A stretch of 64,000 nt of DNA from Linnemannia elongata. Its lineage: Eukaryota; Mortierellomycota; Mortierellomycetes; Mortierellales; Mortierellaceae. Location of the stretch: positions 1,364,001 to 1,428,000 of the forward strand of contig JAXBDG010000002.1 of assembly GCA_036320915.1 (NCBI GenBank), given 5' to 3'. The notes under the pieces are model-generated. The model saw nothing but the letters and a program-made list of their open reading frames with translations, was not told where the DNA came from and did not search any database. Shown in pieces: positions 23,776-45,500 of the stretch. Position 1 is the stretch's first letter, and each line of letters starts with the position of its first letter. The position numbers and the translations under genes were made by a program.

Positions 23776-24759
23776 CTAATCCTCCAGGGCTTCGGTGGCG
23801 TCAGTAGTGTCGAGAAGAGGAGTTTCACGCGTGTAGTACTTGGGATGGCCGACATATTCAACCTTCCCATAGAGAATCGCTCTACGCTTGGACAACTCAA
23901 CGCCCTTCTCAGACTCGAACTCAGATTCCTCCTCAGGAGTGATGTCAGTGATGGAGGCAGAGGATGGGAGGTCGCGCTTCCTGATGTCGGCAGGGTTGAC
24001 ATATCGAACCGATCCATAGACCTGCATTCGGCGCTTGGACAAGCCAACATCATCCACAGACTCGGACTCGGACTCGGACCCAGATTTCAACTCGGGAGTA
24101 GTGGTAGCGGAGGCGGAGGGTGAGAGGTCGCGTTTCCTGATGTCGGCAGGGTTGACATATCGAACCGATCCATAAACCTGCATTCGGCGCTTGGACAAAC
24201 CAACATCATCCACAGACTCGAACACGGGTTCGGACCCGGATTTCAACTCGGGAGTGGTGGTGGTGGTGGTGGTAGGGGTAGAAGGGAGGTCACGACGCTG
24301 GTTGAAGCCACCAGAGCCGATCCATCTAATCCACGAATTAGGCATCGCCCTACGCTTGGACAATTCAACACCGTCCACAAATTCGGACTCGGATTCGGAC
24401 TCGGGTTCCTCCTCAACGGGTTCAGTGGCATGGCCTGGTGGCACAGTCTTGTAGCTATCGTCATCCTGGCGCTTGAAAACGACAGGGGTTTCGACTGGGA
24501 GACCGATCTGAGAGGGAGGGAAGCGGAAAGGAACCCTGGTGGGGACTGCGATGACGACAGGCGTGGAAGTATCAGTGGGACAGGCTATTTCGGGGAAGCC
24601 AATAGAGTAATGATCTCTGACTCGGAGTGAAGGTTGGTCATCGGCTGGGACTGGGACTGGGACAGCGGAGACCAAGTCATTGGAGACGGAGCCGAGAATG
24701 ATCAGCAGGACTGCGACAAAGATGGACCACGACAGCGAAGGCATCTTGTTAAATTTCAT
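23776..24759 (-). CDS. Secreted Kex2-type repeat peptide precursor A (four units)
   Basis: 327 residues. The start at 24759 is chosen because MKFNKMPSLSW begins like the paralogues (MK...) and runs straight into a signal peptide (SIFVAVLLIILG, cut probable after LVSA|VPVPVP). An upstream in-frame ATG at 24807 would add 16 basic residues. The mature part has four units, each an acidic Ser/Glu/Asp spacer, V(E/G)LSKRR, a core and a second basic site. The cores are AMPNSWIRWIGSGGFNQ-RR, MQVYGSVRYVNPADIR-KR (twice) and AILYGKVEYVGHPKYYT-R. Cleavage at the KR/RR sites by a Kex2-like protease would release peptides of about 16-17 residues. The organisation fits repeat peptide precursors of fungi; the peptide function is unknown. 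TATAAAA lies about 145 nt upstream (24903-24909, minus strand). Confidence 0.8.
   Translation of the reverse strand: MKFNKMPSLSWSIFVAVLLIILGSVSNDLVSAVPVPVPADDQPSLRVRDHYSIGFPEIACPTDTSTPVVIAVPTRVPFRFPPSQIGLPVETPVVFKRQDDDSYKTVPPGHATEPVEEEPESESESEFVDGVELSKRRAMPNSWIRWIGSGGFNQRRDLPSTPTTTTTTTPELKSGSEPVFESVDDVGLSKRRMQVYGSVRYVNPADIRKRDLSPSASATTTPELKSGSESESESVDDVGLSKRRMQVYGSVRYVNPADIRKRDLPSSASITDITPEEESEFESEKGVELSKRRAILYGKVEYVGHPKYYTRETPLLDTTDATEALED
23971..24282 (-). repeat. 156-bp tandem repeat inside precursor A
   Basis: Two 52-codon units differ at only a few positions over their core. The matching gtcgcg words at about 23971 and 24127 set a 156 bp period. Each encodes one MQVYGSVRYVNPADIR core with its spacer. 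Confidence 0.8.
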
Positions 24760-24902
24760 GGCTTCTTTGGCGTTTTTTTTTTTAATCGCAAGAGGTAAGA
24801 TTGGCAAATGTGTTTTGTATTTTGTTTTTGATCGTAGTAAAGAACTGATGAGTAGCTTGATGAGGAATAAAAGAAGAGCGAGAGGAGGGGTCTAAAATGC
24901 TC

Positions 24903-24909
24903 TTTTATA
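24903..24909 (-). promoter_or_regulatory. TATA box of precursor A
   Basis: TATAAAA on the minus strand, about 145 nt before the chosen ATG. Similar boxes stand 139-185 nt before three other members of the array. Confidence 0.5.
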
Positions 24910-26232
24910 TCCCAAGGCGAGTTGAGCGTGCTGTGTAGAAAACAATACTAGTGGCGTCACCCTAGGGAGGAACTATAATCGAGTTTGCCATGCAACAATT
25001 GAAACTAAAAGAGCACAGGGGGCAAATCGAGAGAACGACCTAAAGCGGTTGTTTCTCGCCTCTTTTCTTATTGTACCCCTTCCTCCAGCACGTATTCTCA
25101 ATCCTCTTCTCAAATCTTCTCTATTCTGTGAAAATAACAATTGACAGACCGAGCTTCAGGTGGCAAGAACAATGGTAGTGTGAACAATTAACGCGTCATG
25201 GGACTGTGTGATAACGTAGTGAGGGGCTGTGTGAAAAACGTTGTAAATTTGTTCTTGTTGAAGAGTTGTGTTCATGTAGTAAGAAGTGCTAGAAAATAGA
25301 GGTAGACAGCAGCCACCAGAGGCTATTGTAGCGTAGAAGTCATCAGCACAATCTCACGAGAGAAACCACGCAATTGCAGCGTCATGAGTTCTTATTGTTG
25401 GTGGCTGTAGGGTCGATAGCTTTTTTTTCATAACCCTCTTTTTGCTATGATTTCTATTCTTTCCCTTCTTTTCCCTTTTTATTGTTTCTACTTCTTCCTC
25501 CATTTCCATTGTTGCCAACTATTTTACAATTGGGAGGCAATTAAATGCGACTACACAATAGGAGGTCGTGTGAGTCAAGCAAGATAATAGTTATGCGATG
25601 AGGCATCGAAGCTATGAGCAACTAGGAGAGAATATGGGGGCAATTAGACGGGTTTGAGCATCTGTGGACAAGATATAGAAGACAATAGCAACACTGCTCT
25701 AAAAACGTGGTAAAAATTGATATTACAACTCGAGAAACACCATCTGACCCATAGTACGTGCGGGGTACCATTCTTTTTTTCCCCCGCTGTCGTCATAGCT
25801 AGACAAAAGCTTGATAGCTGAGAACAAAGCGGAACAATAGGAGAGGGGCTACGCGTATAAGTATTATTCGTCTTGTTTTTGGCCATGAGCTGAAGCCTTG
25901 ATGATTGCATGATCTTATGGGTGGCGTGAGCGCCCTAGAAGAAAAAATGTGATGCATGTTTATGGTAGTGGGATGATAAAGTGGGCACCATCGGGGGAAT
26001 TGACCAATCTATCCCATCACACAATCGGCATAGACAAAAAAAGACATGGTCGTGAATGTAACATGGACACCGTCCACATGCATGATGGATACGCCGTTAT
26101 TTTTATTTTTTGAGAAACCACAAAAAAGAAGGGGGAAATGACGGGGTTTAAGGAGCGAGTAAACACGGGTGACTTGCTATTGTTCCTTAATGCTAAGTTT
26201 TTCATGGGAACACTCAAACCTCAAAACTACAT
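24910..26232. other. Gene-poor spacer in the peptide array
   Basis: No gene is supported. A/T-rich sequence with short open frames only. A block near 25057-25075 containing ttctcgcctct resembles sequence upstream of precursor E (about 32081). Confidence 0.4.
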
Positions 26233-26583
26233 TCAAGGACCGAGTCCAAAGTCCAAAGGCTGGGGCTTCTTTTCTTTCTCAACCTCTTGCGCTGCCCCCA
26301 CAGTCTTGTTACAGACAGGGCCATGTCCAAAGTGAGGGTTCCAGTTTGTTGGACAAGGAATGAGGATAGCTGTTCTCGTCGGTGCAACATCATCTTGTGT
26401 TGTTGCTGCTGTTGTCTCTGCAACTCCCACGTTGTCGTCGACGTCGGCAGTGTTGTCGTTGTCGTGTCGCTGCTGCAGCTGTTCGAGATCGAGTACTTGG
26501 ACGGGCGCTGCAGTTGAGTAGGAGGTGAAGGCGAGGCCGAGAACCAAGGACAGTACGACAGAGAGAAAGATCGAGATTCTCAT
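26233..26583 (-). CDS. Small secreted protein with a two-Cys loop
   Basis: 116 residues. The start at 26583 begins MRISIFLSVVLSLVLGLAF, a clear signal peptide with probable cleavage after YSTA|APVQV. An in-frame extension upstream exists but places charged sequence before the signal. The mature region is acidic and Asp/Thr/Val-rich, then ends with CPTNWNPHFGHGPVC (13 residues between two Cys), a Lys/Glu patch and QPLDFGLGP. It shares the A-P-V after the signal and the strand with the neighbouring precursors but has no LSKRR unit. It could be a diverged member or an unrelated secreted protein. The two Cys may form a small disulfide loop. Confidence 0.6.
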   Translation of the reverse strand: MRISIFLSVVLSLVLGLAFTSYSTAAPVQVLDLEQLQQRHDNDNTADVDDNVGVAETTAATTQDDVAPTRTAILIPCPTNWNPHFGHGPVCNKTVGAAQEVEKEKKPQPLDFGLGP

Positions 26584-27699
26584 TGCTGTGGAGTTTGCGG
26601 GTTGGTGTATGTTATTTTTTTGGTAGTGGGATGAGGGAAGGAGAAGAGTCTGGATAAAGGATATGATAACGTGAAGATGCGATGGCGAAAGGGAGGAAAG
26701 GAAGAAAGAGTTAAGACGACATGACCTTTTTATTTTATTCCAATATTGAAACAGCGAAGAATGGACTCCCTCAACTTTCGGGATCAAACCATTGGCTCAA
26801 TATAGACGCAACGGACCATGGCAAATTCTTCGGTCTTCCCTTTTTTGATTTTTACATCTCTCATGAATCTAACATAAGCAAACAATACACCAACTGCGAG
26901 TAAGCGTACATCCATAAATGGCTTTGCTTCAAACATGTTTCTACTGGGTACTTATTTCTCAGTATGCCTTCGCCTGTTCTCATCAAAGAGGCACGCAGAC
27001 GCGAATAGTAGGTGTGAAAAAAGTGGAAAAGGAACAAGAGAAACAAAAGAGGAAACCCTTGCTACCACACTTCGTGTGGAACGCACAAGCTAGGCAAAGG
27101 GCAGAGCCCACACTTTAACTGAAGATAGCACTCATGCTCAGACTCCTCCTCTCCGTCGTCAGATGTGACTGGAGAGTTATACCTGAGGTATGTATTGGAG
27201 AAGATGGTATGGCCGGATCAGTCGCGTGGTGGGAGAGGTCCAGGGCCTTACTAGTGGTAATGGTAGTAGTTGTGAGGGCAGCAAGGCGTGAGGGAAGATA
27301 CATGAGAGGGAAGGCCAAAACGAGGCCAGTGGGAAAGATAATACCTCCTGCTCTTGCTTCCATTCACGCTCTTTTTTACTTTGAAGGACAACCAGGGACA
27401 CTTTTAAAGTCGTATTGCAAACGAGTTGTTGTATTTTTAAGTCTCTTCATTATTAAATTATAGCCTATGGTGATCATAGGACTGGAGAGGGGGCGTAAAG
27501 GAGGACAGGAAGAGGATGAGAAGAACGAAAAGGGAAGGTATAAGATCTTCACATTCCACTGAAAAAAGAAAAGGATTATAACGAAAAAAAAACGAAGGGA
27601 TTAAAACAATGAAAGATCAGGAGTACCCGATCAAGCACTCGAGACCAGCTCGATGGCGCCATGAAAACAGGACTACCACACCGCGGGAACTCTCTCTCC
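26584..27699. other. Spacer in the peptide array
   Basis: No confident gene. An 82-codon minus-strand frame (27115-27363) has a hydrophobic N-terminus but no LSKRR unit, and was not called. Confidence 0.4.
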
Positions 27700-28197
27700 T
27701 CAGTGCGCGGTGGTGCTGGTAAGGTCGCGCTTCATATCATCATAGGGTCGTCGTCCGCCTCTCGCTGCTCGCTTGTACAGATCGACAGCGTTCTCGAACT
27801 GGGGCTCGGAAACCTCTTCCTCAATGATGGTTGTGGAGGAAAGGTCGCGCTTCAATTCATCAGTATAGGGCCGACTTCCGCCTCTGATCCCTCGCTTGGA
27901 AAGATGATCGCCTTCCTGGGATCTCAGTTCGGATAGCTCTTTGAGAGCGGTGTCCAAGGAAAGGTCCCGCTTCAAATCGTCGAAGGGCGGTCTTTCGCCT
28001 CTCGCTGTTCGCTTGTAAAGGGCAGGGGTGAGGACCGGAAGGTTGGCTTGGTTGGCGCCGGTGATGTGGAAGGTCTTGGGGGCAGCAATGGATCCGGCAA
28101 GGCGAAAAGGGACCGGGACAGCATTGATCAAACCGGAAGCAAACAGCAAGGCCAAGAGAGCGGTGCAGGGCAAATAGGTGATGTCGTTGACCTTCAT
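27700..28197 (-). CDS. Secreted Kex2-type repeat peptide precursor C (Arg-rich cores)
   Basis: 165 residues, starting MKVNDITYLP with signal peptide (ALLALLFASG) and likely cut near INA|VPVPF. Three units follow. Their cores stand between KR sites: TARGERPPFDDL-KR, GIRGGSRPYTDEL-KR and AARGGRRPYDDM-KR, each then followed by D-L-(S/T). These 12-13 residue cores share (A/G)xRGxxRPxxDxL/M and differ from the YGxxxYV cores of its neighbours, although signal, spacer and flanking L(S/Y)KR and KRDL signals match. Processing by a Kex2-like protease is the natural reading. TATAAAA lies about 185 nt upstream (28381-28387, minus). Peptide function is unknown. Confidence 0.78.
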   Translation of the reverse strand: MKVNDITYLPCTALLALLFASGLINAVPVPFRLAGSIAAPKTFHITGANQANLPVLTPALYKRTARGERPPFDDLKRDLSLDTALKELSELRSQEGDHLSKRGIRGGSRPYTDELKRDLSSTTIIEEEVSEPQFENAVDLYKRAARGGRRPYDDMKRDLTSTTAH

Positions 28198-30109
28198 TGT
28201 GAAACTGTACCGTAAAAAAAAAATTGAGGGTATGAATGAAGAGAGGGATGGGCTGTGAGGAGATTTTTTATGAATGGAAGTCGCTGGTGTGTAGGTAGGC
28301 GTTACTCGGTGTGAGTGGTAGGAAGAGGAAGATGGTCAGTGAGTTGATGAAAAGGAAGATAAACGTGCGTGGTCGAGTCCTTTTATAACATGATGAAAAA
28401 GAGGCGGGAATTACTTCGCCATGGGCAAGGCAATGGCAAGATCACGCTAAAGATGCAAAATAGAACTCGACTAATCATGCAATGCATGGTGTACGAAGCA
28501 GGAAGCAGGCGTAAAATGAAATGCAAAAAAAAAAAAAAAAAAAAAAAAAAAGGTAACAAGCAAGAAGTCTTGTTCTCCCATTTCCTTTTCTGTGATGTGT
28601 AACCATGTTTGGGCTTCAATGAAGAAAACCAACAGGACCGAACAGGGCTCACAAGGGGAAAACATTAATTGCAAAGAGGCGAGCCAAATCGCGTGTCGTT
28701 GAAGACAATAGGCAAAGTGGCGGGTTCATGGGCGCCATGGTATTAAGGTTAATGCCTCGCCCCTTATTCTTTGTCTTCTTCTCTCCTATCCGTTCTATAC
28801 AAGCAAGAACGGTAAGTTCTTTCATTTCTCAATTGATGAGAGGAGGTGTTTCTACACTATAGAAGTTCGATGCGTTGCTGAGCCCGATCAAAAAGAAAGG
28901 TAGTGGCGCCTTAAATTCTTTTCTGGTGTGGAGGAGCGATCAATGCCAAAGTAGGAGAATTAAACGAGGGAGATGGCACACATCTTGCTTGTCTTGAGAA
29001 GACGTGATAAATTACGGCGTGAAGTAGCAGCCTAATGCTGCTAAGAGATAGCAACAGACACACCCGTCTTCCCTCTCTTACGCCATATGGGGACAAGCCC
29101 TCTGCACCTCCACGCACCACAATTTAATGCCTCACCTACTACATCTTTGCTTGCCAATGTGCAAATTTATTTTTTTCATGTCTCTACACTTATGAAAAAG
29201 CAAACGCCGAGTGAAAAATAAGAAAAAAAAAGGTGGAAGATCGAAGAGGGTGGGCGTAACGCTCGACCAAGAGGCGTAGACGTCCTACACTATATGATAA
29301 TATGAGAGGTTTTTACCTTGCCTCTTCTTTGTGCCCTGTTTTTCTTGAAAGGTATAGGGTGCCACCCTCACCATCCCCTACACATTTTTCAACTACGCCA
29401 AACTGCTAGTTCTCAACGCGTTGTTTTGCTCAGTTTAGACCACTTTTCTTTCCTTTTTGCTAGGTATTGATACCACACCAACTCCATTTCTCGGTAGTCG
29501 CAGTCCAGACCATGCTCTTGGAGTGTGGGAGTCATAGATGAGCAGTAATTGAGAACCTGAATGGACATGACTGACATGGCCAGGGAGATAGGGAAAGGAT
29601 GTGTAGAGAATCTACTGGCAGCTTTGATCGTCGTCGTTGAAGCCGCGGGGAGAGAGAAGCTTGTGATTGGCTAGGACGTGATTGAGATATCATTACTGAT
29701 GTGCAGAAAACACGACATGAAACGAGAACAGATAACAAGTGATTGATTCAAAGATAACAAAAGGATAGTTCAAGAGGGAGTTCTGACACTTGTGTGTGCC
29801 AAGTATGATCGTGTACACCTTCCATTCGCACGCGGCGAGTTGGGCTTACCACAAATTTCAATTATCTAGATGCGAGTCCGATGGACTGTAGCATTGGGTG
29901 TAAAAAGCATCATCAGGATTTTATTTGTGAGATATGGCATGCTTGCTTGCACGCTTTTTAGACTCAAGAGCATAGGAGGGAAAACAGAGGATCTAAAATG
30001 GGAAGGCATAGGTATCTATTTCTATCTTCCTGTAAAATAAGGACACAAGTACCAAGCGAACGGCGCTTGGAGAACCCGACACGGCTCTTAGTGGATTAGC
30101 GTTGGGGCT
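28198..30109. other. Spacer in the peptide array with a unit remnant
   Basis: No gene could be supported over about 1.9 kb. It has an A run of about 27 near 28525-28551. Just downstream of precursor D, a minus-strand stretch at about 30046-30078 reads VGFSKRRSLG in a shifted frame, a probable decayed unit. Confidence 0.4.
30046..30078 (-). pseudogene. Decayed LSKRR unit downstream of precursor D
   Basis: Out of frame with precursor D and beyond its stop, the minus strand encodes VGFSKRRS. The DNA word cggcgcttgga matches the KRR-encoding word in intact units. The stretch is short, so chance similarity is possible. Confidence 0.3.
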
Positions 30110-30475
30110 TCATATCGTCAGGCGAGGTAATGGGAAAAGGTCACGCGTTTCGTACTTGGGATGGCCGACAAATTCAAGTTTCCCGTAGACTATCGCTCGA
30201 CGCTTGGACAATTCGACATTGTTCACGGACTCGGACTCAGGTTCCTTAGGAGCGATGGCGGTGGGAAGATCACGCTTGTAAATGACTGGGATGACAGCCG
30301 GAGGGTGGACCTTGATGGGGATTGGAGATAGGGTGGTGCGAGAAATGGCAATGGGTCCAACGTGACGAACTGGAACCGGAACAGCGGAAGCCAGGATGGT
30401 AAAGGCGATGCCAACCATAGCCAATAGGGCCACGAGGGGAGACCAGAAAAGACGAGGGACGATGTTGATCTTCAT
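30110..30475 (-). CDS. Secreted Kex2-type peptide precursor D (single unit)
   Basis: 121 residues from ATG 30475 (MKINIVPRLFW, aligned with the MK starts of the paralogues). An ATG six codons upstream is possible, and the longer open frame upstream is not credible. The signal peptide ends near ILASA|VPVPV. A first basic site lies at VIYKR-DLP, then an acidic spacer, VELSKRR, the core AIVYGKLEFVGHPKYET and RD. The core closely matches the last core of precursor A (AILYGKVEYVGHPKYYT), so the two share a recent ancestor for that unit. Two TTTATA words (30624-30637) give TATAAA on the minus strand about 150 nt upstream. Confidence 0.75.
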   Translation of the reverse strand: MKINIVPRLFWSPLVALLAMVGIAFTILASAVPVPVRHVGPIAISRTTLSPIPIKVHPPAVIPVIYKRDLPTAIAPKEPESESVNNVELSKRRAIVYGKLEFVGHPKYETRDLFPLPRLTI

Positions 30476-31351
30476 CGGAGAGAGAGTGTTCATGGAAGTG
30501 AAAGGCGAGAGAGTTTTGCGCGTGTTTTTTTTTTGTGTGTGTGTTGGTGTTGACTGATGGTGTGTGGGTGCCTGCAAGAGATCGATGATTTGATAAGGAA
30601 AACCGAGGTGCGATCTGGATAACTTTATACCTTTATACAACAGGTGCGGTTGCCTATGTATGATATGTAAACACGAGTGAACCCCAATCAACAGTCGTAG
30701 CCTTCTCGTTTCCGCTTTCCTCTCGCGCATCACCTCTCGAGCACCATCAAGCAGTTGGAAAGGAATCAGTAAACAAAATACTTCAAGAGGAGGCGAAAAT
30801 ACAGATGTAATGAAGGCGACAAGGCTATGTCGCTGATTGGATGATTGTTAATATTTTCGCCCCTTTCGTTATTGTTCACTTCTCCTGTTGCTTTGCCTCT
30901 CTGGACTAGATCAATTAGTGCTGATTTGAAGAGTCCGCTGTGGCGCGTAGATTAGTGGCTTTAAAATTTTTACGCCTATGTTCACTTCCTCTCCATGTTC
31001 AAAGTCTCTACTTTTGTTATAGGCTCGACGCATGCCAGAATGCCATGCATCGTTCAATTTTTCTTGTTTTTTATCGAATGCTGGCATCGTAGAAAAGACA
31101 AGTATTTGATATTGATGATGACGCGTTGTGAATAAAGAAAAGGATTTACTAGCCATAAGAAAGATAGCCAAGGAATGTAAAACCAAAAGAGGGTTAAAGG
31201 AACAAAGGCGGAAAGACGAATGAGAATAAAAGAGATCAGGAGAGGTAAAGGAGTATTTTTTCTACACAGCTACCCCGAATAAGAACCACACACTCACGTC
31301 TCTCATGGCTGCTCGGCCTTCTTCTCAGTGAATGACGTTTGCAGGGTTGCG
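30476..31351. other. Spacer between precursors D and E
   Basis: No gene is supported. Contains the TATA words of precursor D and the 3' flank of E. In frame after the stop of E the minus strand reads RNPANVIH then stop, which recalls the NPADI of intact cores. Confidence 0.35.
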
Positions 31352-31738
31352 TTATTCATCCTCGATTTCGATCATCATGCCATAGGGGTTGTCGGCCATC
31401 ATACGGCGCTTTGACAGATCAACATAATTCTCGAACTCCTCCTTCTCAGGTGTCGTGGAGGACAAGTCGCGCTCCATGTAGCTGTCAGGATGGGCGGCTT
31501 GGATCTGTTCAGATTTCCTCATTCGGTGCTTGGTCAGCTCAACACTCCCCTCCATCGACTCGGACTGGGAAGGAGGAATGAGTTCGATCGACTCGGGAGT
31601 TCGCTCAGTGAAGGCTTGACTCAAGGCTGTCAAGACTGGGGCTGCTGAGGTCAAATCGATGGAGATGGTGCCGACGGTAGCCAGCAGGACCACAAGGAGG
31701 ACGGTCCATGGCAGGTGACAAATCTTGCTGGACTTCAT
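31352..31738 (-). CDS. Secreted peptide precursor E (degenerate units)
   Basis: 128 residues. The start at 31738 gives MKSSKICHLPW and a signal peptide (TVLLVVLLATVG) with likely cut near LTSA|APV. Two units follow. The first reads VELTKHR-MRKSEQIQAAHPDSYME-RDL, in which the first basic site has become KHR and the second ER, so both may be cut poorly. The second reads VDLSKRR-MMADNPYGMMIEIEDE and ends without a closing basic pair. The first core is homologous to the second core of precursor F (MRKSGQIQTVHPDDYMK). TATAAAA lies 139 nt upstream (31876-31882, minus). It may be a functional gene with weakened processing or an early stage of decay. Confidence 0.7.
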   Translation of the reverse strand: MKSSKICHLPWTVLLVVLLATVGTISIDLTSAAPVLTALSQAFTERTPESIELIPPSQSESMEGSVELTKHRMRKSEQIQAAHPDSYMERDLSSTTPEKEEFENYVDLSKRRMMADNPYGMMIEIEDE

Positions 31739-33289
31739 GTTGACTTTTTTTCTTGTTTTTGGTAAGGTGTAAGTAGGGAGGGTCAAAGTATGTTTTGTGG
31801 ATTTGTTGTTCTTTATGAGCTATCGATGAATGTGTTAGATAATGAAGAACCAAAACACGAGGGTCTGTGGATGTCTTTTATAGCTTGATGGGCCTTAGGG
31901 GTGGCTGTCTGTCCGTGTAGAAAACAGTGAGTGTGACTTGCCCCAAGCCGAAGACAATAATAGAAAAGTAATTCTTCAAACGCCGTGTGAACGTAGAGGG
32001 TCATTTGAAGGGCGCGCGACCAACATCGGACAGGATCTGTGTCAATAGAGGGAAAAACAGACTTCACTGTTCAAGTCGGCATTCTCGCCTCTCATCCTAT
32101 TGTAATCTATTTTCTTCTATCCCCTTGTAGCTGTCGTTATTGCCCTGTGCATCCCCGATTTTGTTATTTCCTTATTATCTGCCGTCCTTTTCTTTCTTAA
32201 AGAAGGAGAACAATTAAGGGAGGGAGATCGAGTCAGATGAGGCTTTGAGTCTGGGGACAATAGACACACATTGGACAATAAGGATAGGTGTAGATAAAGG
32301 CAATGGAGGCCTCAGTCGATGAGAGATACAAGCCATCAGGAAAGTATTTGGGAGCGAACAGTGGAGTATGAACTGCTGTGGGTGGCGTGTGTTTCTAAGA
32401 CAGCTCGAATTCATGAGCAGTTGAGAAACGTGGTTGTTGGACAACCTGCTACAAAAACGATAGTGAGGAAGATAGACATGAGATGGTTCCACAGCTGGAA
32501 AACGATTTTTCCCGTCCTTGAGATGAGTGATTTGTGTTGTGAAAGAATGTCAAACAGATACTGACAAGCAAGGATAGACAAGCAGACAACAGAAGCATTA
32601 ATAACGGAACATGTGAGCGCCTTCCAAAACAAAAAGATCAAAACAATAAGTAAACCAGCTGTCACGGCTCCAGTACGGTTCAGCCCCCACTTCGTTTGTT
32701 ATCACAGGGAAAAAATCAAGCATGAACGACATAGCACCAAGATGCGAGTATTTGGGGTCTAGTTGTGTGGCACGAAGTTGTCTGTAGCTAAGCCCCTTGT
32801 ACGCGACCCTATGCTTTTTTTACACTTGTCAAGAAAATTCTTCAAGGAACCCTAGAAAAGGCACACAAAACAAGTGGGCTGGCATTCACTATGCCATCTC
32901 AGAGTCAAGTAAGGATTGCTGGGATTAAGAAAAGAATGGACAAGATAATGCTACCGAGAGGGGAGCCGTGGGATGTAAGGGAAGAAATGATTTGCAGAAG
33001 GTTGAGTGTAATTTTATGCCGCTTTTTCTAACAACATAGAGTAATGACTCGTACTCCAGGTTTGGATTCCAGAGCGCAGGAATTCATGTCAACAAAAATA
33101 AACAGGGGAAAGTGGACAAGGAGAGAGGGAATGGAGAAGAATGGAAATAGGCATGGGCAAGGATGGGGTAAGTAAATGTATTTGCGCCAATTTCAAGTAA
33201 GAGTCATAAGGTCTTGTGTCAGTGTAAGAGCAATTGAAAACGATTGCCCAAACGACGCTCCGATAGCTCGACACATTCCTCCTCCGCTT
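31739..33289. other. Spacer between precursors E and F
   Basis: No gene is supported over about 1.5 kb. Small open frames at 32214-32665 on both strands overlap each other and lack signal peptides or units. Confidence 0.4.
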
Positions 33290-33437
33290 TCACCTCTTCT
33301 ACCATAGGCTTGAGCTTCTCCTCGGAGGTAATAGTGTTGCTGATGTGTACGGTACAGGGGACGTCCTCGCGCTTCTTTTAGTGGCCAGGATTGACATATC
33401 TAATGATCCCATTCGCTATCACTCTATGCTTGAAGAA
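33290..33437 (-). pseudogene. Decayed terminal units of precursor F
   Basis: In the same frame as precursor F and directly after its stop, the sequence reads FFKHRVIANGIIRYVNPGH, a second TAA, then KKRED, and further on VELSERRLGN before a final stop. This is a recognisable LSKRR-core-KRRD unit plus the beginning of another, interrupted by two in-frame stops (33438-33440 and 33378-33380). Precursor F therefore probably once had more units and was shortened by a nonsense change. Confidence 0.6.
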
Positions 33438-34115
33438 TTAAGCACCATTCTCAGACTCGGATTCGGACTCGGACTCAGACTTGGACTCGGACTTGGGTTC
33501 GTCCTCAGGCGTGGTGGTAGCGAAAGGAAGGTCGCGCTTCATGTAGTCATCGGGGTGTACGGTTTGGATCTGCCCAGATTTCCTCATTCGGCGCTTAAAC
33601 AGGGCAACACCCTCCTCAGGCACCTTCTCAGAAGTGATGGTGGTGAAGGCAGAGGGATGATCGCGTCTCCTGATGTCGGCGGGGTTGACGTATCGAATCG
33701 CTCCATAAACCTGCATTCGACGTTTTGAGAGCTTGACATCGCCTTCAGTCTCGAAATCCTTCCCTTCTTCAACGGACTTGACACCAGGCTTGGCCCGGTT
33801 GTAGATTTTGACGCCTGGAGTGTCGATATAGCATTCCATGACAGAGTCGATCAGGTGGCGAAAGTCTTCATCATCCCGCTCGCCCTGATTCCAGCGAAAG
33901 ACCTGGGTAGCGACGGTATGGTCGACTTGAGTGGGATAGGAGCCAGGTCTATCAGCAGGGATGGCAGTTTGGATAGTGGGAATAGGAACTTCGGTTCTGG
34001 AAGAGAAAGATGCAATTGGGGCTGAAGATACCAGGACGTTCGAGCTGGTACTAGCCGTGGCAATCAGGGCTAAGATGACGGACCAGAGCAAACGTGAGAG
34101 GTTGTCGAGCTTCAT
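33438..34115 (-). CDS. Secreted Kex2-type repeat peptide precursor F (truncated)
   Basis: 225 residues from ATG 34115 (MKLDNLSRLLW), with signal peptide SVILALIATAST and likely cut near LVSSA|PIAS. A 90-residue non-repeat region with one Cys precedes two units. They are VKLSKRR-MQVYGAIRYVNPADIR-RRD and VALFKRR-MRKSGQIQTVHPDDYM-KRD. An acidic Ser/Glu repeat tail follows and ends at a stop inside what was the next spacer. The first core is nearly that of precursor A; the second matches precursor E. F thus combines units found separately in two other genes. No good TATA is seen; TTAAAA lies about 145 nt upstream. Confidence 0.75.
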   Translation of the reverse strand: MKLDNLSRLLWSVILALIATASTSSNVLVSSAPIASFSSRTEVPIPTIQTAIPADRPGSYPTQVDHTVATQVFRWNQGERDDEDFRHLIDSVMECYIDTPGVKIYNRAKPGVKSVEEGKDFETEGDVKLSKRRMQVYGAIRYVNPADIRRRDHPSAFTTITSEKVPEEGVALFKRRMRKSGQIQTVHPDDYMKRDLPFATTTPEDEPKSESKSESESESESENGA

Positions 34116-35599
34116 TCTCGTGGAGGTAAACGGAAAGAGAGAGAGCGAGGTGTTTGTGTTGACGTTATTGTGCGTGTGTTGTTCTGAGGTGGGATAAATC
34201 GATTCCTGCGTTTGAAAAGGGCAAAAAAAAAGGAAAGATGGATTGCATTCTTGCAGGATCTTTTAACCCAAAGCAATAACGGCGACACAAGTAGTGGTGC
34301 AGGTTAAAAGACAGAGACTAGAGTACCAGAGAAGCAAGAATAGGGTTACGGTCTTGGCTAAATGACCATATTTAGCGATTGATCGTGGTAGCAACAGCGA
34401 GACGGGTTGAAGATATGTCGTGTATGTGGTATGATAGTGAGGAGAGGGAATCAAACACCGCAAACACCAACGACAAACCCCTTTCTGCCCGGTTTACTCT
34501 TTTCCTTCCACATTTAGTCCATTAGTTTCACCCGCCTCCCGATAAAAAAATCAAACCAACATTATGCTGTGGTACGGCCGGAAGGTGGAGAGCTTCCATG
34601 CAGTCAATGAAAAATGGTAGCATTCAAACGACATACATTAACAAGATCAGCGTGTGTGTCGTATCCTTCTTTGTCGTTTCATTTCTCTTCGCTCACTTTG
34701 CTACTTTCAAGCGGGAATAAATATTCCTCGCATTAGATGTGGTTGCCTTCACAGGCTGACAGTCTGGTCACACAAAATGAGAATGCACCTTAGAGGCAGC
34801 TCTTTTCTTTTCGAAAGGTGTATAATTGGGTGGCTGAGAGAGACCGACGGGTGAAAAAAAAAATGAACATACACTCTTTGTTTAACTTATCAGTCCCATA
34901 CGAGCCATCCTTCCTCCGTCTCCTTCCTTTTCCATCGTTTTGCAAAGTCTGGCTTGATCACCTCTTCGATACATTTTCCAACACACTCTACCATCTATTC
35001 GGTGCTCCACTTGTGGTTTGATTTGCTTGGCGCCTTTATTTTTTCTGGGTTTCTCTTTGAATTACGAAAGTAGAAATCAGAAAAGTGGCGGGCGACAGGA
35101 GATAATTCATCATTCATTCGTTTCAAAAAAAACAACATGGGCACTGGAGATATGTATACTATCAAAGCTTTCTTTACCCGGATTAGCTTCTGTTATCGAT
35201 GTGGTTTCCTTATACGGGACGCTCTTTCTAACCCAAAACAAAGAAATGAAATGAAATGGGATATGTAATCAAGAAGAGCGAAGAGTTGTGATTGGTTGGG
35301 GCGCGATCGTGTTATCGACCCGCTGATAGACAATATATTGATGAGGGCGCAGCTCGGGTACGTGAACAAAATGAACTGGAAAGGATTAATTTGGTGATAG
35401 ACGCGTTAGGCCGTGAGGGCATGAGAGAGGGCAAAGAAGGCATAAAAAAAAGTAGACGTCAAAGAAGGGGGGAAAGTGAAAGGAGAGTTCTCTACTTCTT
35501 TTGAAGACAGGGTTAACAGGTCTCCAAGATTTGGTTGGAACTGACGGCGCTCCATCCCAATTTGGAGTTCAATGTCAGTCTATGATCCCTCGTCATAAG
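34116..35599. other. Spacer between precursor F and the broken copy G
   Basis: About 1.5 kb without a supported gene. A plus-strand 70-codon frame (35292-35504) is very rich in Arg, Glu and Gly and has no recognisable feature. The region around 35283-35330 resembles 29661-29700 weakly (gttgtgattggttgggg versus cttgtgattggctagga), perhaps an old duplication. Confidence 0.35.
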
Positions 35600-36074
35600 A
35601 GGCGGTGGGTACCGAGGTCTCGCTCTTAGGTTCTTGTAAGCAAAATCCACCGGTAAGTGTTAGAATCGATCATTTGGCGCCTTAACAAAGGAACAGTGTC
35701 CACAAACTTGAGCTCGTACCCGTACGCGGACTCGGGGTCCTCAGGAACGTCGCGCTTCTCGCAACCGGCAAGTTATCAATAGAGGAGGTGGCGTGCTGCG
35801 TTTTCCCACCTTGTCGCCATTCATTATAGCAAAATCGGGATCTGTCGCTTCCTTGCCCTTCTCCTGGCCGGCCAAGAGCTTGAGAACGTCATCACTGCAG
35901 CCTAACTCCCTTTGAAGGGAGCAGGCAGTATTATTTTTGGAAAGCATCATCAGGTCTGGAAAGAGAGCTGCGACTGGGGCTGAAGAGACTTGAACGTTCG
36001 ATTTGGTGCGGACCATGGCCAGATGGACCCGGAAAGCGGACAACCACAGGAGAGGGCTGTTGTCTCGTTTGATT
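35600..36074 (-). pseudogene. Broken secreted precursor G
   Basis: The minus strand aligns with the start of precursor F. Where F has ATG-AAG-CTC-GAC-AAC, this copy has ATC (36072-36074) at the start codon position, followed by KRDNSPLLW. Later NVQVSSAPVAA matches NVLVSSAPIAS, so the signal peptide region is recognisable but now has charged residues inside its hydrophobic core. The frame then runs to a stop at 35741-35743. A one-base shift upstream of that stop restores GKRD/EKRDVPEDPESAYGYELKFV, a unit-like stretch with YGxxxxV. Loss of the start, a damaged signal and a frameshift together indicate a pseudogene. An upstream ATG at 36103 could in principle give a 120-residue product without a good signal. 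Confidence 0.6.
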
Positions 36075-36289
36075 CTCGTGAAGGGTGAGAGTAAAGGGCT
36101 CATGAGTATGAGAGGCTGGTAAGCAGGGCAAGGAGCAATGCTAGTACGTCTACCGCCTTCCTCGTTGTCATTCTATTTTTTTAACTCAAAGGCCTAATTG
36201 TTAAGAACACCCTCACGAAAATAGGACCAAACAAAAGCGGCAAGAGAACAGTAAAGATGTCAGCTACAGATTTGCTCTAATACTAAAAG

Positions 36290-36907
36290 TACACCCAATT
36301 TTTTTTACGGACAAAAGGATAAGAAATCTGTCCGCAAATTATTTTGGAAGAAATGAATCGAAAAGGTATTCAGTCATGGAAAAAGTATTCAGTCACATGA
36401 CGAATAGTCCACCTAAAGACAAAAAGACAAGAGAGGGTAGGGACAAAAAACAACCTTGCCTTCTCCCCTACACTCTTTTTTGCTAAAAATCCCACTTTAC
36501 TATGAAAAGCGGGATCTTTTCCACTGAATTAAAATATTAGGCGTGATATTCAATTCACGTTAGCTTGGCTTGGATTTACGCATGCAGAGAGAGACCAACT
36601 CTGCGCTAGGATATAAGACATGGTCAGCCGCCACAAAACTGAATAACACCTCTTATATTTTCAATTCAGTGGAAAAGATCCCGCTTTTCATAGTAAAGTG
36701 GGATTTTAGCAAAAAAGAGTGTAGGGGAGAAGGCAAGGTTGTTTTTTGTCCCTACCCTCTCTTGTCTTTTTGTCCCTAGGTGGACTATTCGTCATGTGAC
36801 TGAATACTTTTTCCATGACTGAATACCTTTTCGATTCATTTCTTCCAAAATAATTTGCGGACAGATTTCTTATCCTTTTGTCCGTAAAAAAAAACAAATT
36901 GGGTGTA
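36290..36907. mobile_element. MITE-like element with ~255 bp inverted arms and TA flanks
   Basis: The left arm (about 36290-36545) and right arm (about 36648-36907) are near-perfect inverted copies. Both begin tacaccc at the outer edge and run through tacggacaaaaggataaga, caagagagggtagggac and ccactgaatt. About 100 bp of unique sequence lies between the arms. The outer ends read agTA-caccc and gggtg-TAat, compatible with a TA target duplication as made by Tc1/mariner-type transposases. There is no transposase frame, so it would be a non-autonomous element. The arms differ by small indels, mainly in the outer A/T run. It stands about 215 bp upstream of the lost start of copy G. Confidence 0.8.
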
Positions 36908-37311
36908 ATACATACACGCCCTCTTCTCAAAGCCAACAGCTGAGCACAAGAAAACAGGTAAGCGATGGATCATTAGTCTGCTAGTTTTGTTCCTGTCGTG
37001 TGTAGGGTGGAAAAAAAAAAACCTAACAAAACGCGACTAACAGAATTACATGAGACAGGAGGGGAAAAAAATATTCTCGACAGTGCCCCCCCCCCCCCCC
37101 CCCCCCCCAATCCACGTCTCAAAAGCAACTATAGGATAGGATAACCAACGCACCATGACAACACGAAGCATGCATCCTTACTGGTAACATTGCATTCGAA
37201 TGGTTGATTATTATTAATAGTTATCACCTATTGTAACCAGGACGCAGGCGTCGAAAGAAAGGGAGAAGGAGGCGTTCACGCAGAAAATAACAAGGAAAGG
37301 AGAACAGGAAC

Positions 37312-37348
<37 letters not shown>

Positions 37349-37419
37349 ATCTACTCTCCAACCTTTCAGGAGTAATGCAAAGAACCCTGGACAGTGGAAA
37401 CTCTACTCGTCTTATCATC
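36908..37419. other. Spacer with poly-C and poly-A runs
   Basis: No gene is supported. A run of about 23 C lies at 37086-37108, and an A run of about 32 near 37315-37346 lies just downstream of precursor H. Confidence 0.5.
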
Positions 37420-37932
37420 TTACTCATACTCCTCCTTACGTTCTCTTTCATAATCATACTCTTCCTGCAGCCATTCCACCACCTCCTCTGACTCTTCTTC
37501 TTCTTCTTCTTCTTGTTCTTCCTCTACCTCAGACTCTTTCTCGAGCTCATCAGGCATGAAAGTCAGGACGTCACGCTTGACCTCATGCTTGACGTAGCCA
37601 ACCATCGACTTGTAGAGTGGAGCTTGTAGGCGGCGCCAGCGGTTCGACAACTCTACAATATGCCCTTGGAATTCCTTGGGCGAGTTTAAGACCCTTTGTC
37701 CTTGCGCATTCGAGCAACAGTCATTTGCAGGTTCGGAAACCCCGTTCATCACGCGGCCATTATTCCAAGGATCGAGTAAGTGGCCTTGGGGGCTGTGAAA
37801 TGAATGGGTGAGGATAGGAGCTGCGGAGACCAGGCCAGCGAAGGAGACGGTAGATTTAAAGGTAGTATTGGCTGAGAGGAGCAAGATCATAGGAGCTAAC
37901 AAGGGCAGGTATGGGATGTTTCTGAGCTTCAT
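37420..37932 (-). CDS. Secreted precursor-like protein H (one degenerate unit, acidic tail)
   Basis: 170 residues from ATG 37932 (MKLRNIPYLPL), with a hydrophobic signal (LLAPMILLLSA) and probable cut near GLVSA|APIL. The middle has VELSNRWRRLQAPLYKSMVGYV and then KHEVKRDV. This keeps the order LS-basic site-core with (Y/G)YV-KRD of the family, but with NRWRR in place of SKRR. The last 45 residues are almost entirely Glu with some Tyr and Arg. Two Cys are adjacent (DCCSN). It is the most diverged called member, placed at the right end of the array. Upstream sequence includes a run of about 38 A at 37970-38007, and no TATA box was seen. Confidence 0.65.
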   Translation of the reverse strand: MKLRNIPYLPLLAPMILLLSANTTFKSTVSFAGLVSAAPILTHSFHSPQGHLLDPWNNGRVMNGVSEPANDCCSNAQGQRVLNSPKEFQGHIVELSNRWRRLQAPLYKSMVGYVKHEVKRDVLTFMPDELEKESEVEEEQEEEEEEESEEVVEWLQEEYDYERERKEEYE

Positions 37933-42564: not shown

Positions 42565-45500
42565 TTACAGCTTGCCAAAGTAAACCTCACGGAGGGTCTC
42601 GTGAGTATAACGCTTCTCGGGGTCGGTCTCCAAAAGACCGCGGATGGCCTTACGGGCATCGTTCTCCTGGATAGCCTCAAGGGCGGGCTCAAAGGCAGTA
42701 CCCTCTTCGCTGGCCAACTGGAACTCGGCGAAGTTGGAGGACGAGAAGTAGGTCTTCTTGGTGTGCAACTCGTAGAGGATCAATCCGAGCGACCAGCGAT
42801 CCATCGAGACCGAGGCCAAGACGTTGGCATCGGCCTTCTTGCGTCCGTTCAAGATCTCAGGGGCAGCATAGGTGACAGTGGTAACGGAAGTATCGACAGT
42901 CTCTCCAACAAAGCGGGCATGGCCAAAGTTCCAGAGCTTCCAGACCAACTGACCGTTGCCGTCCTTGGCATCAGCGCCGGGAACACCCTCGAGGTAGAAC
43001 GAGGCAGGGCGGACGTTGAGGTGGACGACGTGGTGCTCGTGGCACCAGCGGAGGGCATCGGAAAGGGAAAGGGTCATCTGGCGGATCTGCTGGGAGGACA
43101 AGGTCTCGGTCTGGATGTACGACTCCAAGGTGCGAGAGAAGGAGCCCAAGATCGAGACGTAGCGGTATTCGGCAAAGGTAGGCAGGGAGTACAGGGTGTA
43201 GAGTTCAGAGATGTAACGGTCAGACTTGAGGTGCTGGAGCATACCGGCCTCACGCTTCCAGTGGGGCTCAACCTTCATCCACTTGATCGTGCGGGCAGCC
43301 TGGGGGGCCTTGGTCTCCTCAACATGCGAGTAGGCAGTCTCATCAATGTTGACGGCACCAGCGCCGATCATCTTGAACTTGGAGAACAGAACAGTTCCAA
43401 CAGCAGCGGCAGGGACGGCAGACGAGGCATCAGCACGCTCGTAGCGCATGATGGACAACTTCAAGGTGATCTGGGTCTTGTTGGCAGCCTGCTCAGCAGG
43501 AGTCAACTGACCGCCACCGACAACGCGGGTGGTAGTCGTGGACTGGTGGTTGTTTCCGATCAACTTGGCGCCGGCGCCGACAATGATGGCACCGCCAGGG
43601 ATGCGGAAACCGCCATCCTCGGTGCGCTCGACAACAGTGCGAATCTCCTGGCCATCGGGTCCGTTGGTGATGTGGTAGTAGGTAACCTCTCCAGCCTGGT
43701 TGCGCTCCGAGACGATGCGTATCTGCTCGCCACTTCCAGAGGTGGTGGTGGACGAGCCCTCAGTAACGGTGCCGCCAGAGACAGTGCGGGTGGTAGTAGT
43801 AACATTTCCGGTAATAACGGCGCCAATGACCTTGCGGATCTCTCCGGTCTCGGTCCTCTCCTCAGTCACATAGCGCAGCTCACCCTCGGGCTCCTTGACG
43901 GGGATGTGGACAAACTCTCCAGTCTCCTCGTGGCGTTCAAACTTGGTGCGGATAGCGTTGCCGTTGTACTGATCAACAATCACGTAGCGGATCTCTCCAG
44001 TCGAGGTGCGCTCGGTCACAATGCGGGGTCCCATAATAACACGAGTGATGGTGTTACCGGTGATAACGCCGCCAATGATATAGCGGATCTCACCCGACTC
44101 GGAGCGCTCGGTGATAACGTGGCGAAGCTCGCCGGTCTCCTCGTTGGTGGGGATAAGGCGGATCTCTCCAGAGGAGGTCTTTTCAGTAATGACACGGATG
44201 GCGTTGCCGCTGAAGCCACCAACAATGATGTAGCGGATTTCGCCAGTCGAGGTACGTTCGGTGATAATGCGGGTCGAGGAGGTAACAGAGGTAACGCCGC
44301 CGGGGATGGTGCGGACACCACCAGACTCGGTGCGCTCGGTCATGGTGCCAATGGCGCCGCCAGCAATGATGCCTCCAATAATATAGCGGATCACGCCAGA
44401 ATCGGAGCGCTCAGTGATGACGTGATGAAGCTCGCCGGTGGGCTCGTTGGTGGGAATGTAACGGGTCTCGCCAGTGGTGGTACGCTCAGTAATGACACGG
44501 ATGGCATTGCCGCTGAAATCGCCAGTAATAACCTGGCGGGGCTCGCCGTTGGGGCCACGCTCTGTCACAATACGGGTCGAGGAAGTAACGGTAGTGGTGC
44601 CTCCGGGGATGATGCGGGTGGTCTCTCCAGAATCAGACTCGGTGCGGGAAGTAACGACATGGCGAACAACACCGGCACCGACGGCACCGGCGATCAAGCC
44701 TCCAATGATGTAGCGGATCTTTCCGTTCTCATCGCGTTCCTCGATAACATGGCGTTCGTCACCCTCGGGGTGCTCGACAGGGATCAAGACCTCCTCACCA
44801 GACTCGGTGCGCTGGGTGATAGTACGGATAGTGGTAGTTCCAGGGACAACGCCGGTCAAGACATGGCGAGCAGTGCCAGTCTCGGTGCGCTCAGTAATGA
44901 CAGTGCGGCCGCCAGTGCCAGTGGTGGTGTAGATACGGCCTCCGTTCTTGGTAGTGGTAACAGTGGTCTTGCTGGTGACAATCTTCTCAGACGAGTCGTT
45001 CTTGTGCTTGTTGGCAACGACGGCAGCAGCGCCGCCCAGACCGATAGCACCGGCAATAGCGCCAAAGATTCCAGTACGACCGCCAGAGGTGGTAGTCTCG
45101 GTAGTAGTCTCAGTAGTAGTGGTAGTCGAAGAGGAGCCGCCAACAGGGACGACACCGCCGGGGCCAGTGGGACGAGGAGTGTTGGTAGTATCGGTAGGTC
45201 CGCCAGGGACGGGAACAACGTGGGAGCCGCGACCAGTCTGGGTCTCATCATCGATTTCAGTCTTGTCGGAGGGACCGCCGGGGACTGGGACAGGGACAAC
45301 ATGGCCGTTGGTGACCTTCTCTTCAGACTTGTTCTTGTGGTGACCGATGGCGGCACCAACAGCACCGGCAGCAATAGCACCGCCAATGATGGCACCAGTG
45401 TGGTTGTGCTTGCCGTTAGGAGTAGCGCCAGTGGGGGGAACGTTATGACCAGAACCAGAAGGACCAGGAGGGAAGGAAGAGTCGCCAGAGGGACCGCCGG

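What the first reader, a model, noticed from the sequence alone, without database searches (positions are those of the whole stretch)
23776..37932. Same-strand array of secreted, Kex2-type repeat peptide precursor genes
Seen: at least six intact minus-strand genes (A, C, D, E, F, H) plus one broken copy (G) in 14 kb. Nearly all begin MK, with a signal peptide ending S-A-(V/A/S)-P. Most carry units of acidic spacer, LSKRR, a 12-17 residue core, then (K/R)RD. Known: fungal secretory proproteins are cut after KR/RR by Kex2-type proteases, and repeat precursors releasing several related peptides occur in fungi. Inference: this is a locally amplified family of secreted signalling or interaction peptides. 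I know of no description of these cores (YGxxxYVNPADIR, YGKxEYVGHPKY, RGxxRPYDD).
Basis: partly seen in the sequence, partly recalled or inferred. Interest (0 to 1): 0.88.

Follow-up and report, generated by a model that had tools for sequence, protein, structure and literature searches.

The report
Mosaic Kex2-type peptide precursor gene array
A 14-kb stretch of what is likely a Linnemannia soil-fungus genome holds six intact same-strand genes and one broken copy whose proteins are predicted to be secreted and cut at Lys-Arg sites into short peptides, several of these peptide types recurring in more than one gene, and the peptides likely serve as extracellular signals.

Summary
Six intact minus-strand genes (A, C, D, E, F, H), one relic (G) and one unrelated-looking small protein (B) lie at 23.8-37.9 kb. 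The six have a hydrophobic N-terminus and cores bounded by KR/RR. Relatives of all six exist; every named one is from Linnemannia, Mortierella or Haplosporangium, and gene order is largely kept. Seven searches of the window's 51-Mb genome gave no hit outside the array at E below 0.03. Core types recur in different genes; paralogous cores show pN/pS 0.24; cores are better kept than spacers in five of six alignments (two overlapping; C is the exception), each weakly on its own. Gene A has 4 units here, 3 and 2 in two L. elongata records. The genome carries two adjacent Kex2-like genes. It works like the known KEX2-processed repeat proteins (KEPs), but only 2 of 38 family proteins have three cores at least 60% alike, so most fail the published repeat criterion: here the repetition lies between neighbouring genes. 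Cleavage, release and signalling are inferred, not shown. I rate it a new variant of a known kind.

The parts
23776..24759 (-). Gene A: precursor, 327 aa, 4 units (core types NSW, YVNP, YVNP, GHPK)
   Evidence: relatives P0002-P0007, P0029
24298..24348 (-). A core 1 AMPNSWIRWIGSGGFNQ (KRR..RRD)
   Evidence: coordinates worked out from the frame
24136..24183 (-). A core 2 MQVYGSVRYVNPADIR (KRR..KRD)
23980..24027 (-). A core 3 MQVYGSVRYVNPADIR, one synonymous change from core 2
23833..23880 (-). A core 4 AILYGKVEYVGHPKYY (KRR..TRE)
26233..26583 (-). Gene B: small secreted-looking protein without KR/RR sites, probably not part of the family
27700..28197 (-). Gene C: precursor, 165 aa, 3 cores of the RGxRPYDD type after single KR sites
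   Evidence: relatives P0019-P0023
27973..28008 (-). C core 1 TARGERPPFDDL
27853..27891 (-). C core 2 GIRGGSRPYTDEL
27733..27768 (-). C core 3 AARGGRRPYDDM
30110..30475 (-). Gene D: precursor, 121 aa, one GHPK-type core (upstream in-frame ATGs exist)
   Evidence: relatives P0028, P0032, P0034
30149..30196 (-). D core AIVYGKLEFVGHPKYE
31352..31738 (-). Gene E: precursor, 128 aa, two cores, the second ending the protein
   Evidence: relatives P0025, P0027, P0030, P0031, P0033
31475..31522 (-). E core 1 MRKSEQIQAAHPDSYM (KHR..ERD)
31355..31402 (-). E core 2 MMADNPYGMMIEIEDE (C-terminal)
33438..34115 (-). Gene F: precursor, 225 aa, two cores; orthologs with up to four units elsewhere
   Evidence: relatives P0008-P0012, P0014, P0017, P0024
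33669..33716 (-). F core 1 MQVYGAIRYVNPADIR
33540..33587 (-). F core 2 MRKSGQIQTVHPDDYM
33237..33437 (-). Eroded relic of further precursor sequence downstream of the stop of F
35608..35739 (-). Gene G: recognisable part of a broken copy, most like P0013 of H. gracile
37420..37932 (-). Gene H: divergent precursor-like gene, 170 aa
   Evidence: relative of the second half of P0018 only
37579..37629 (-). H candidate core LQAPLYKSMVGYVKHEV (RR..KRD)

Best explanation
The 14-kb region is an array of mosaic precursor genes whose proteins are predicted to enter the secretory pathway and to be cut at KR/RR by a Kex2-type protease, which would release linear 12-17-residue peptides that likely act as extracellular signals of the fungus. 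Shown from sequence: intact frames, N-terminal hydrophobic segments, regularly placed dibasic sites, acidic spacers, core types shared between genes, recognisable cores and largely the same gene order in relatives, and two Kex2-like genes in the genome. Inferred: the signal peptide is removed at the X-A/S-X-P junction; Kex2 cuts after KR or KRR (P4 is usually Leu/Phe, as recalled for Kex2 and for the yeast alpha-factor SLDKR site); a Kex1-type carboxypeptidase trims the C-terminal K/R; unit-by-unit duplication, loss and exchange between neighbouring genes sets the mixture of peptides. Most inferential: that the peptides are self-directed ligands. I prefer this because most cores are constrained, near-neutral and cysteine-free rather than toxin-like.
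For: Dibasic sites above shuffles in A, C, D, F. A profile built from 16 of the family's own units marks 4 units in A, 1 in D, 2 in E, 2 in F and units in their relatives (partly circular). Three family searches give 34 proteins, of which P0001 is the window's own and P0016 differs from D's frame only by reading through its stop; the 26 with a source name are all from Linnemannia, Mortierella or Haplosporangium (searches scored only the roughly 8000 candidates sharing most words). Order by locus tag: L. hyalina 6032-6029 = C, D, E, F; M. hygrophila 376-379 = A, C, E, F; Mortierella sp. GBA39 13985-13983 = D, E, F. Six core types each occur in two to four gene positions. Paralogous cores: pooled pN/pS 0.24, Fisher P 4e-4 on truncated counts, three pairs. 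Cores better kept than spacers in 5 of 6 alignments, two of them overlapping. Two adjacent genes with subtilase and P-domain parts. The 12 cores computed have no Cys and charges -5 to +1; helical moment below 0.3 except in the C type.
Against: No expression, cleavage or secretion data. E and H do not exceed chance in dibasic sites. In C, cores are less conserved than spacers between window and M. hygrophila (0.58 vs 0.66) and equal over five sequences (0.41 vs 0.41). In the shift test the other sets reach only 0.05 to 0.11 each (12 of 249, 6 of 122, 12 of 118, 7 of 63, 5 of 104 shifts). In F orthologs the leader is nearly as conserved as the cores. No STE2 or STE3 receptor hit, but the control genomes were silent too, so this says nothing either way. 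KEP knockouts in Coprinopsis cinerea had no axenic phenotype (PMC9769878, abstract and discussion read), which speaks for a biotic-interaction role instead.
Confidence: 0.62

Rival explanations
1. The peptides are released as described but act outward, as effectors or antimicrobials against plants, bacteria, nematodes or endobacteria, rather than as signals between fungal cells.
For: KEP knockouts in C. cinerea showed no axenic phenotype and the authors favour biotic interaction (PMC9769878). Unit turnover and restriction of the named hits to one fungal group fit an arms race. The C-type cores have high helical moments (0.50-0.74) and are no better conserved than their spacers.
Against: The other cores computed are near neutral (one at -5), cysteine-free and weakly amphipathic, and the paralogous pairs show pN/pS 0.24.
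Confidence: 0.27
2. The cores are ustiloxin-like RiPPs, cyclised through their conserved tyrosines by UstYa (DUF3328) oxidases.
For: Several core types have conserved Tyr; ustiloxin-type precursors share the signal-peptide-plus-KR layout (PMC7329392).
Against: No UstYa hit in the genome, though the control was silent; none of the 12 flanking frames or frame pieces of the window that I scanned has such a domain. Umemura found no DUF3328 proteins in any of the six phyla outside Ascomycota and Basidiomycota.
Confidence: 0.05
3. The proteins are ordinary secreted, mostly disordered surface or wall proteins with incidental basic motifs, and are not cut to peptides.
For: E and H have few dibasic sites; leaders are long and, in the five four-unit F orthologs, about as conserved as the cores (0.76 vs 0.78).
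Against: Sites are far over chance in A, C, F; site columns are 0.74-1.00 identical across the six alignments; in P0031 and P0033 a core is missing exactly from KR to KR compared with P0025 and P0027.
Confidence: 0.06

Closest known systems
KEX2-processed repeat proteins (KEPs), Le Marquer et al. 2019 PMC6339444; Umemura 2020 PMC7329392
   Same: Secreted-looking precursor, cores within the commonest published size class (9-24 aa) between KR/RR sites, lineage-specific core sequences; Umemura reports 767 KEPs without DUF3328 neighbours that have another KEP gene nearby.
   Different: Most members here have fewer than three alike cores: 2 of 38 pass a 60% identity rule. One protein carries up to four different core types (P0005), and a core type is repeated across neighbouring genes. 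Le Marquer reports 1114 of 1193 KEPs with a single motif type.
Ascomycete alpha-factor-type pheromone precursors
   Same: Signal peptide, pro-region, spacers, KR-bounded peptides; P4 Leu before KR (recalled).
   Different: No run of Ste13-type XA/XP dipeptides leads into the cores, though single XA starts occur in half of the C-type cores; unrelated core sequences; no STE2 hit, with a silent control.
Dikaritin RiPP precursors (ustiloxin, phomopsin, asperipin)
   Same: Precursor cut by Kex2; Tyr-bearing cores.
   Different: No UstYa or tyrosinase domain in the 12 flanking frames or frame pieces scanned.
C. cinerea KEPs and their kex2 paralogs (PMC9769878)
   Same: Several precursors plus more than one kex2 gene (three there, two adjacent Kex2-like genes here).
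   Different: Different phylum; there the linear peptides were detected by mass spectrometry, here nothing has been. Whether those genes form a mosaic array was not looked at.

Membership tests
KEP | N-terminal ER signal peptide | tested here: inconclusive
   Hydrophobic N-terminal segment (best 12-residue Kyte-Doolittle mean 2.25-3.06, at most 1.33 after residue 40) in all six and an X-[AS]-X-P junction by eye; no SignalP available
KEP | KR/RR sites bounding the cores | tested here: met
   over chance in A, C, D, F; not significant in E and H, so met for four of six genes
KEP | At least three alike repeats of 8 or more aa within one protein | tested here: not met
   0 of 6 window genes and 2 of 38 family proteins (P0020, P0021, both C-type) have three cores at 60% identity or more; my rule only approximates the published ones, the regex misses or trims some cores, and some of the 38 are partial records
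KEP | A Kex2 protease in the genome | tested here: met
   Two adjacent genes with subtilase and P-domain parts on contig C30
KEP | Peptides actually released | not testable with these tools
   needs mass spectrometry
Alpha-factor-type pheromone precursor | Ste13 signature (XA/XP dipeptides) after the KR site | tested here: inconclusive
   By eye: no run of such dipeptides; single XA starts in 8 of 16 C-type cores (2 of 3 in the window's C) and in P0013's first core, none in the window's A, D, E, F cores
Alpha-factor-type pheromone precursor | Cognate STE2 receptor | tested here: inconclusive
   No PF02116 hit (nor PF02076, STE3); controls silent
Dikaritin RiPP | UstYa (DUF3328) gene in the cluster | tested here: inconclusive
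   No PF11807 in the own genome but the control was silent; none in 12 flanking frames or frame pieces scanned

The most novel reading that the evidence does not exclude
A combinatorial peptide-signalling locus of Mortierellaceae: roughly ten ligand types are shuffled as cassettes between neighbouring precursor genes, so that strains and species differ in the mixture they emit, and the whole array is switched by an HMG-box (mating-type or hypoxia-type) regulator through ATTGTT sites. It would be a peptide recognition code in a group of fungi whose better-known relatives use apocarotenoids, not peptides, as sexual signals.
Probability: 0.14. Interest if true: 0.82.

Novelty: new variant of a known kind. 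Interest (0 to 1): 0.52.

Why it matters
Published KEP surveys ask for three or more like repeats inside one protein, so they would likely miss most members of this array. A search by core-sharing between neighbouring genes could reveal peptide systems across early-diverging fungi, where Le Marquer et al. call the chemical nature of pheromones largely unknown outside two groups (PMC6339444, passage read). Cores short enough to synthesise and a single 14-kb locus make the function directly testable in a fungus that, if it is L. elongata, can be cultured.

Tried and rejected
Pfam on the seven proteins: only weak hits below the curated cut-offs, none for C, F and H. UstYa, STE2, STE3 in the own genome: nothing, with silent controls, so no absence is claimed. 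Papers: Linnemannia + KEX2, 0 papers; Mortierella + 'KEX2-processed repeat', 0; Linnemannia + small secreted + peptide + effector, 0; Mortierella elongata + secretome + small secreted proteins, 0; two of Mortierella/Kex2/peptide precursor, 20 listed, none on Mortierella peptides by title; Mortierella + sexM + mating + pheromone, 3 listed, none read; Linnemannia elongata + secreted + peptide + genome + signal, 4 listed, of which only PMC8070225 was searched by term: 12 of 19 passages shown, 'RiPP' 2 occurrences (a single fungal-RiPP cluster, genome not named there), 'ustiloxin', 'ribosomally' and 'DUF3328' 0. The library holds open-licence papers only. The first core-versus-spacer test used a Mann-Whitney on neighbouring columns, which overstates significance; the shift test replaced it and is weaker. 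The antimicrobial idea was checked by charge and moment and not favoured, except that the C-type cores are amphipathic. B was tested as a member and dropped; no protein search was left for it.

Promoter motif lead: TATTGT/ACAATA is the top non-homopolymer six-mer in the 700 bp upstream of the seven genes A-F and H, present in all seven (14 seen, 3.6 expected from 39 kb of non-coding sequence, Poisson P 3e-5, about 0.05 after 1681 tests; first pass against mixed sequence). ATTGTT and ATTGTTC are also up against 63 overlapping GC-matched segments. I had noticed it by eye first, the promoters may share ancestry, and the background was small. That ATTGTT resembles HMG-box sites is recalled; one search listed one paper, not read.
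Full report
What is there. The window is positions 1364001-1428000 of contig C12 in a 51.1-Mb, 32-contig genome. Gene A's closest relatives are L. elongata proteins (98% and 96% identity in the alignment), so the source is likely Linnemannia elongata or a very near relative; this is inferred. Between 23.8 and 37.9 kb the minus strand carries six intact precursor-like frames (A, C, D, E, F, H), a broken copy (G), an eroded extra stretch behind F and one unrelated-looking small secreted protein, B. Each precursor has a hydrophobic N-terminal segment followed by X-A/S-X-P, a pro-region, and then units: acidic spacer, mostly [LF]-x-K-R(-R), a core, and mostly (K/R)-R-D. A, D, E and F share one core family; C has another; H resembles the rest in layout only.

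Is it more than chance. KR/RR sites exceed composition shuffles strongly in A, C and F, mildly in D, and not significantly in E and H. A unit regex written after seeing the units gives 8 matches in the array and 0 in 245 kb of the same genome. Searches of the whole genome with A, C, H, B and with P0013, P0018 and P0033 (D, E and F were not used as queries) give no hit outside the array at E below 0.03; weaker outside hits lie on C12 (0.034, query B), C5 (0.042), C30 (0.25), C27 (0.42) and C15 (0.83). That is a six-frame search with a loose first look, so other members could have been missed.

Relatives. Three searches of 5.8 billion proteins returned 18, 5 and 27 hits, 34 different proteins in all. 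P0001 is the window's own; P0016 matches D's frame at 99.6%, its only difference being that the stop of D is read through. The 26 hits with a source name are all from Linnemannia, Mortierella or Haplosporangium. Sensitivity is limited to relatives sharing five-residue words, and searches scored only the candidates sharing most words, so more distant members are not excluded. Locus tags, taken as gene order: L. hyalina KI688_006032-006029 are C, D, E, F; M. hygrophila EC957_000376-000379 are A, C, E, F; Mortierella sp. GBA39 BGX30_013985-013983 are D, E, F; H. gracile has F-like 8386 next to P0013 (8387), the best match of G, which follows F in the window. Not all agree: in H. gracile the A-like gene (8391) lies on the other side of 8387, and in L. 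schmuckeri the members are on two contigs and P0026 looks like a fused gene model. For H only one relative, the second half of P0018, was found.

Mosaic structure. Clustering the cores of 38 proteins (six window genes and 32 fetched; B, P0001 and P0016 were dropped) shows six types each found in two to four gene positions: the YVNP type in A, F and P0018; the HPDDY type in A, E, F and the P0013 gene; the GHPK type in A, D and P0026; the NSW type in A and F; the PYG terminal type in A and E; the NIYRW type in E and the P0013 gene. Only P0020 and P0021, both C-type, have three cores at least 60% alike; no window gene does. The regex misses the H core, trims some others and also caught some leader pieces, and some of the 38 are partial records, so the type list is approximate. 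Gene A carries 4 units here, 3 in the L. elongata record BKA57 and 2 in AG-77. The E genes of L. hyalina, M. hygrophila and GBA39 lack the HPDDY core that P0025 and P0027 carry; in P0031 and P0033 the gap runs exactly from KR to KR. The AG-77 loss starts inside a spacer instead. Units thus come and go as cassettes.

Selection. Between paralogous genes, cores differ by 11 synonymous changes in 29.5 sites and 10 nonsynonymous in 111.5 (pairs A3-F1, A4-D1, F2-E1; pooled pN/pS 0.24, Fisher P 4e-4 on truncated counts). Two other pairs were computed and left out of the pool: A2-A3 (1 synonymous, 0 nonsynonymous) and C1-C3 (4 and 5, ratio 0.41). Between orthologs I aligned sets with comparable unit layout (5, 8, 4, 3, 3 and 2 sequences, not all members): cores are more identical than spacers in F (0.78 vs 0.55 and 0.71 vs 0.48, overlapping sets), E (0.86 vs 0.77), D (0.88 vs 0.68) and A (0.86 vs 0.66), and less in C (0.58 vs 0.66); by the shift test each set alone lies at 0.05 to 0.11. 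Site columns are 0.74-1.00 identical. In the five four-unit F orthologs the leader is as conserved as the cores (0.76 vs 0.78), less so in the wider set (0.61 vs 0.71); I cannot explain that.

Machinery. Contig C30 carries two adjacent genes with subtilase and P-domain parts (P-domain E 2e-16 and 2e-17, subtilase 8e-22 and 9e-15; the pro-domain of one scores below its cut-off), and by eye a membrane segment and acidic tail. No UstYa, STE2 or STE3 was found, but the control genomes were silent, so absence is not shown. Umemura reports no DUF3328 proteins outside Ascomycota and Basidiomycota (section read), which favours linear peptides.

How it likely works. Precursors would be translocated, cut by Kex2 at KR or KRR, trimmed by Kex1, and release one to four 12-17-residue peptides per precursor. 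Whether the third Arg stays on the peptide is open: C-type units have KR only, KRR-type units could be cut at either bond. The peptides are cysteine-free and near neutral, except the E terminal peptide at -5. Purifying selection on the shared cores argues for a partner that is itself conserved, hence my preference for a self-directed signal; an outward role is the main rival, and published KEP knockouts in C. cinerea without axenic phenotype favour that rival.

Regulation lead. The six-mer TATTGT is the most enriched non-homopolymer word in the seven 700-bp upstream regions (all seven contain it), about 0.05 after correction. TATAAA lies 144-190 bp before the start codon in A, C, D and E, but is not more frequent overall than in the background (P 0.24).

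Known or new. The class is known: KEPs (for PMC6339444 and PMC7329392 I saw the abstract, passages and one section each; for PMC9769878 the abstract and the discussion). Neither KEP survey's main text contains a word beginning Mortierell-; their supplements could not be read here, so members of this family may be listed there. The cores were not found in print by the searches. New is the organisation: repeats spread over neighbouring mosaic genes, most of which fail the three-repeat criterion. Because that criterion was tested and not met, I file this as working like KEPs, a new variant, not as strict KEPs.

Noticed in passing
window 36299-36893: A long inverted-repeat element (190-nt arms, 99% complementary) between G and H; a 251-base piece of it gives 17 matches in the genome including its own two arms, so it looks like a MITE-type mobile element.
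   Followed up: partly
window 26233-26583: Gene B: a small secreted-looking protein without KR sites inside the array; beyond itself only one marginal hit in the genome (E 0.034).
   Followed up: partly
L013 3510-9119 and L014 187-1934 (contig C30): Two adjacent Kex2-like proprotein convertase genes; PMC9769878 notes one kex2 gene in the ascomycetes whose kex2 was knocked out and three in C. cinerea.
   Followed up: partly
upstream of A, B, C, D, E, F, H (700 bp each): TATTGT/ATTGTT words enriched, resembling HMG-box sites (recalled); also AGAGGC and GTAGAAA words.
   Followed up: partly
P0006, P0012, P0021, P0025: A MAG labelled Linnemannia elongata (JOS17) encodes an A-type protein only 66% identical to the window's A, against 96-98% for the other two L. 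elongata records; its species label may be wrong.
   Followed up: no
window 42565-46776, minus strand: A 1403-aa frame with, by eye, a glycine-rich stretch, a membrane-like segment and repeated TERT-like motifs, and a protein kinase domain (E 2e-23), perhaps a surface receptor-like kinase.
   Followed up: no
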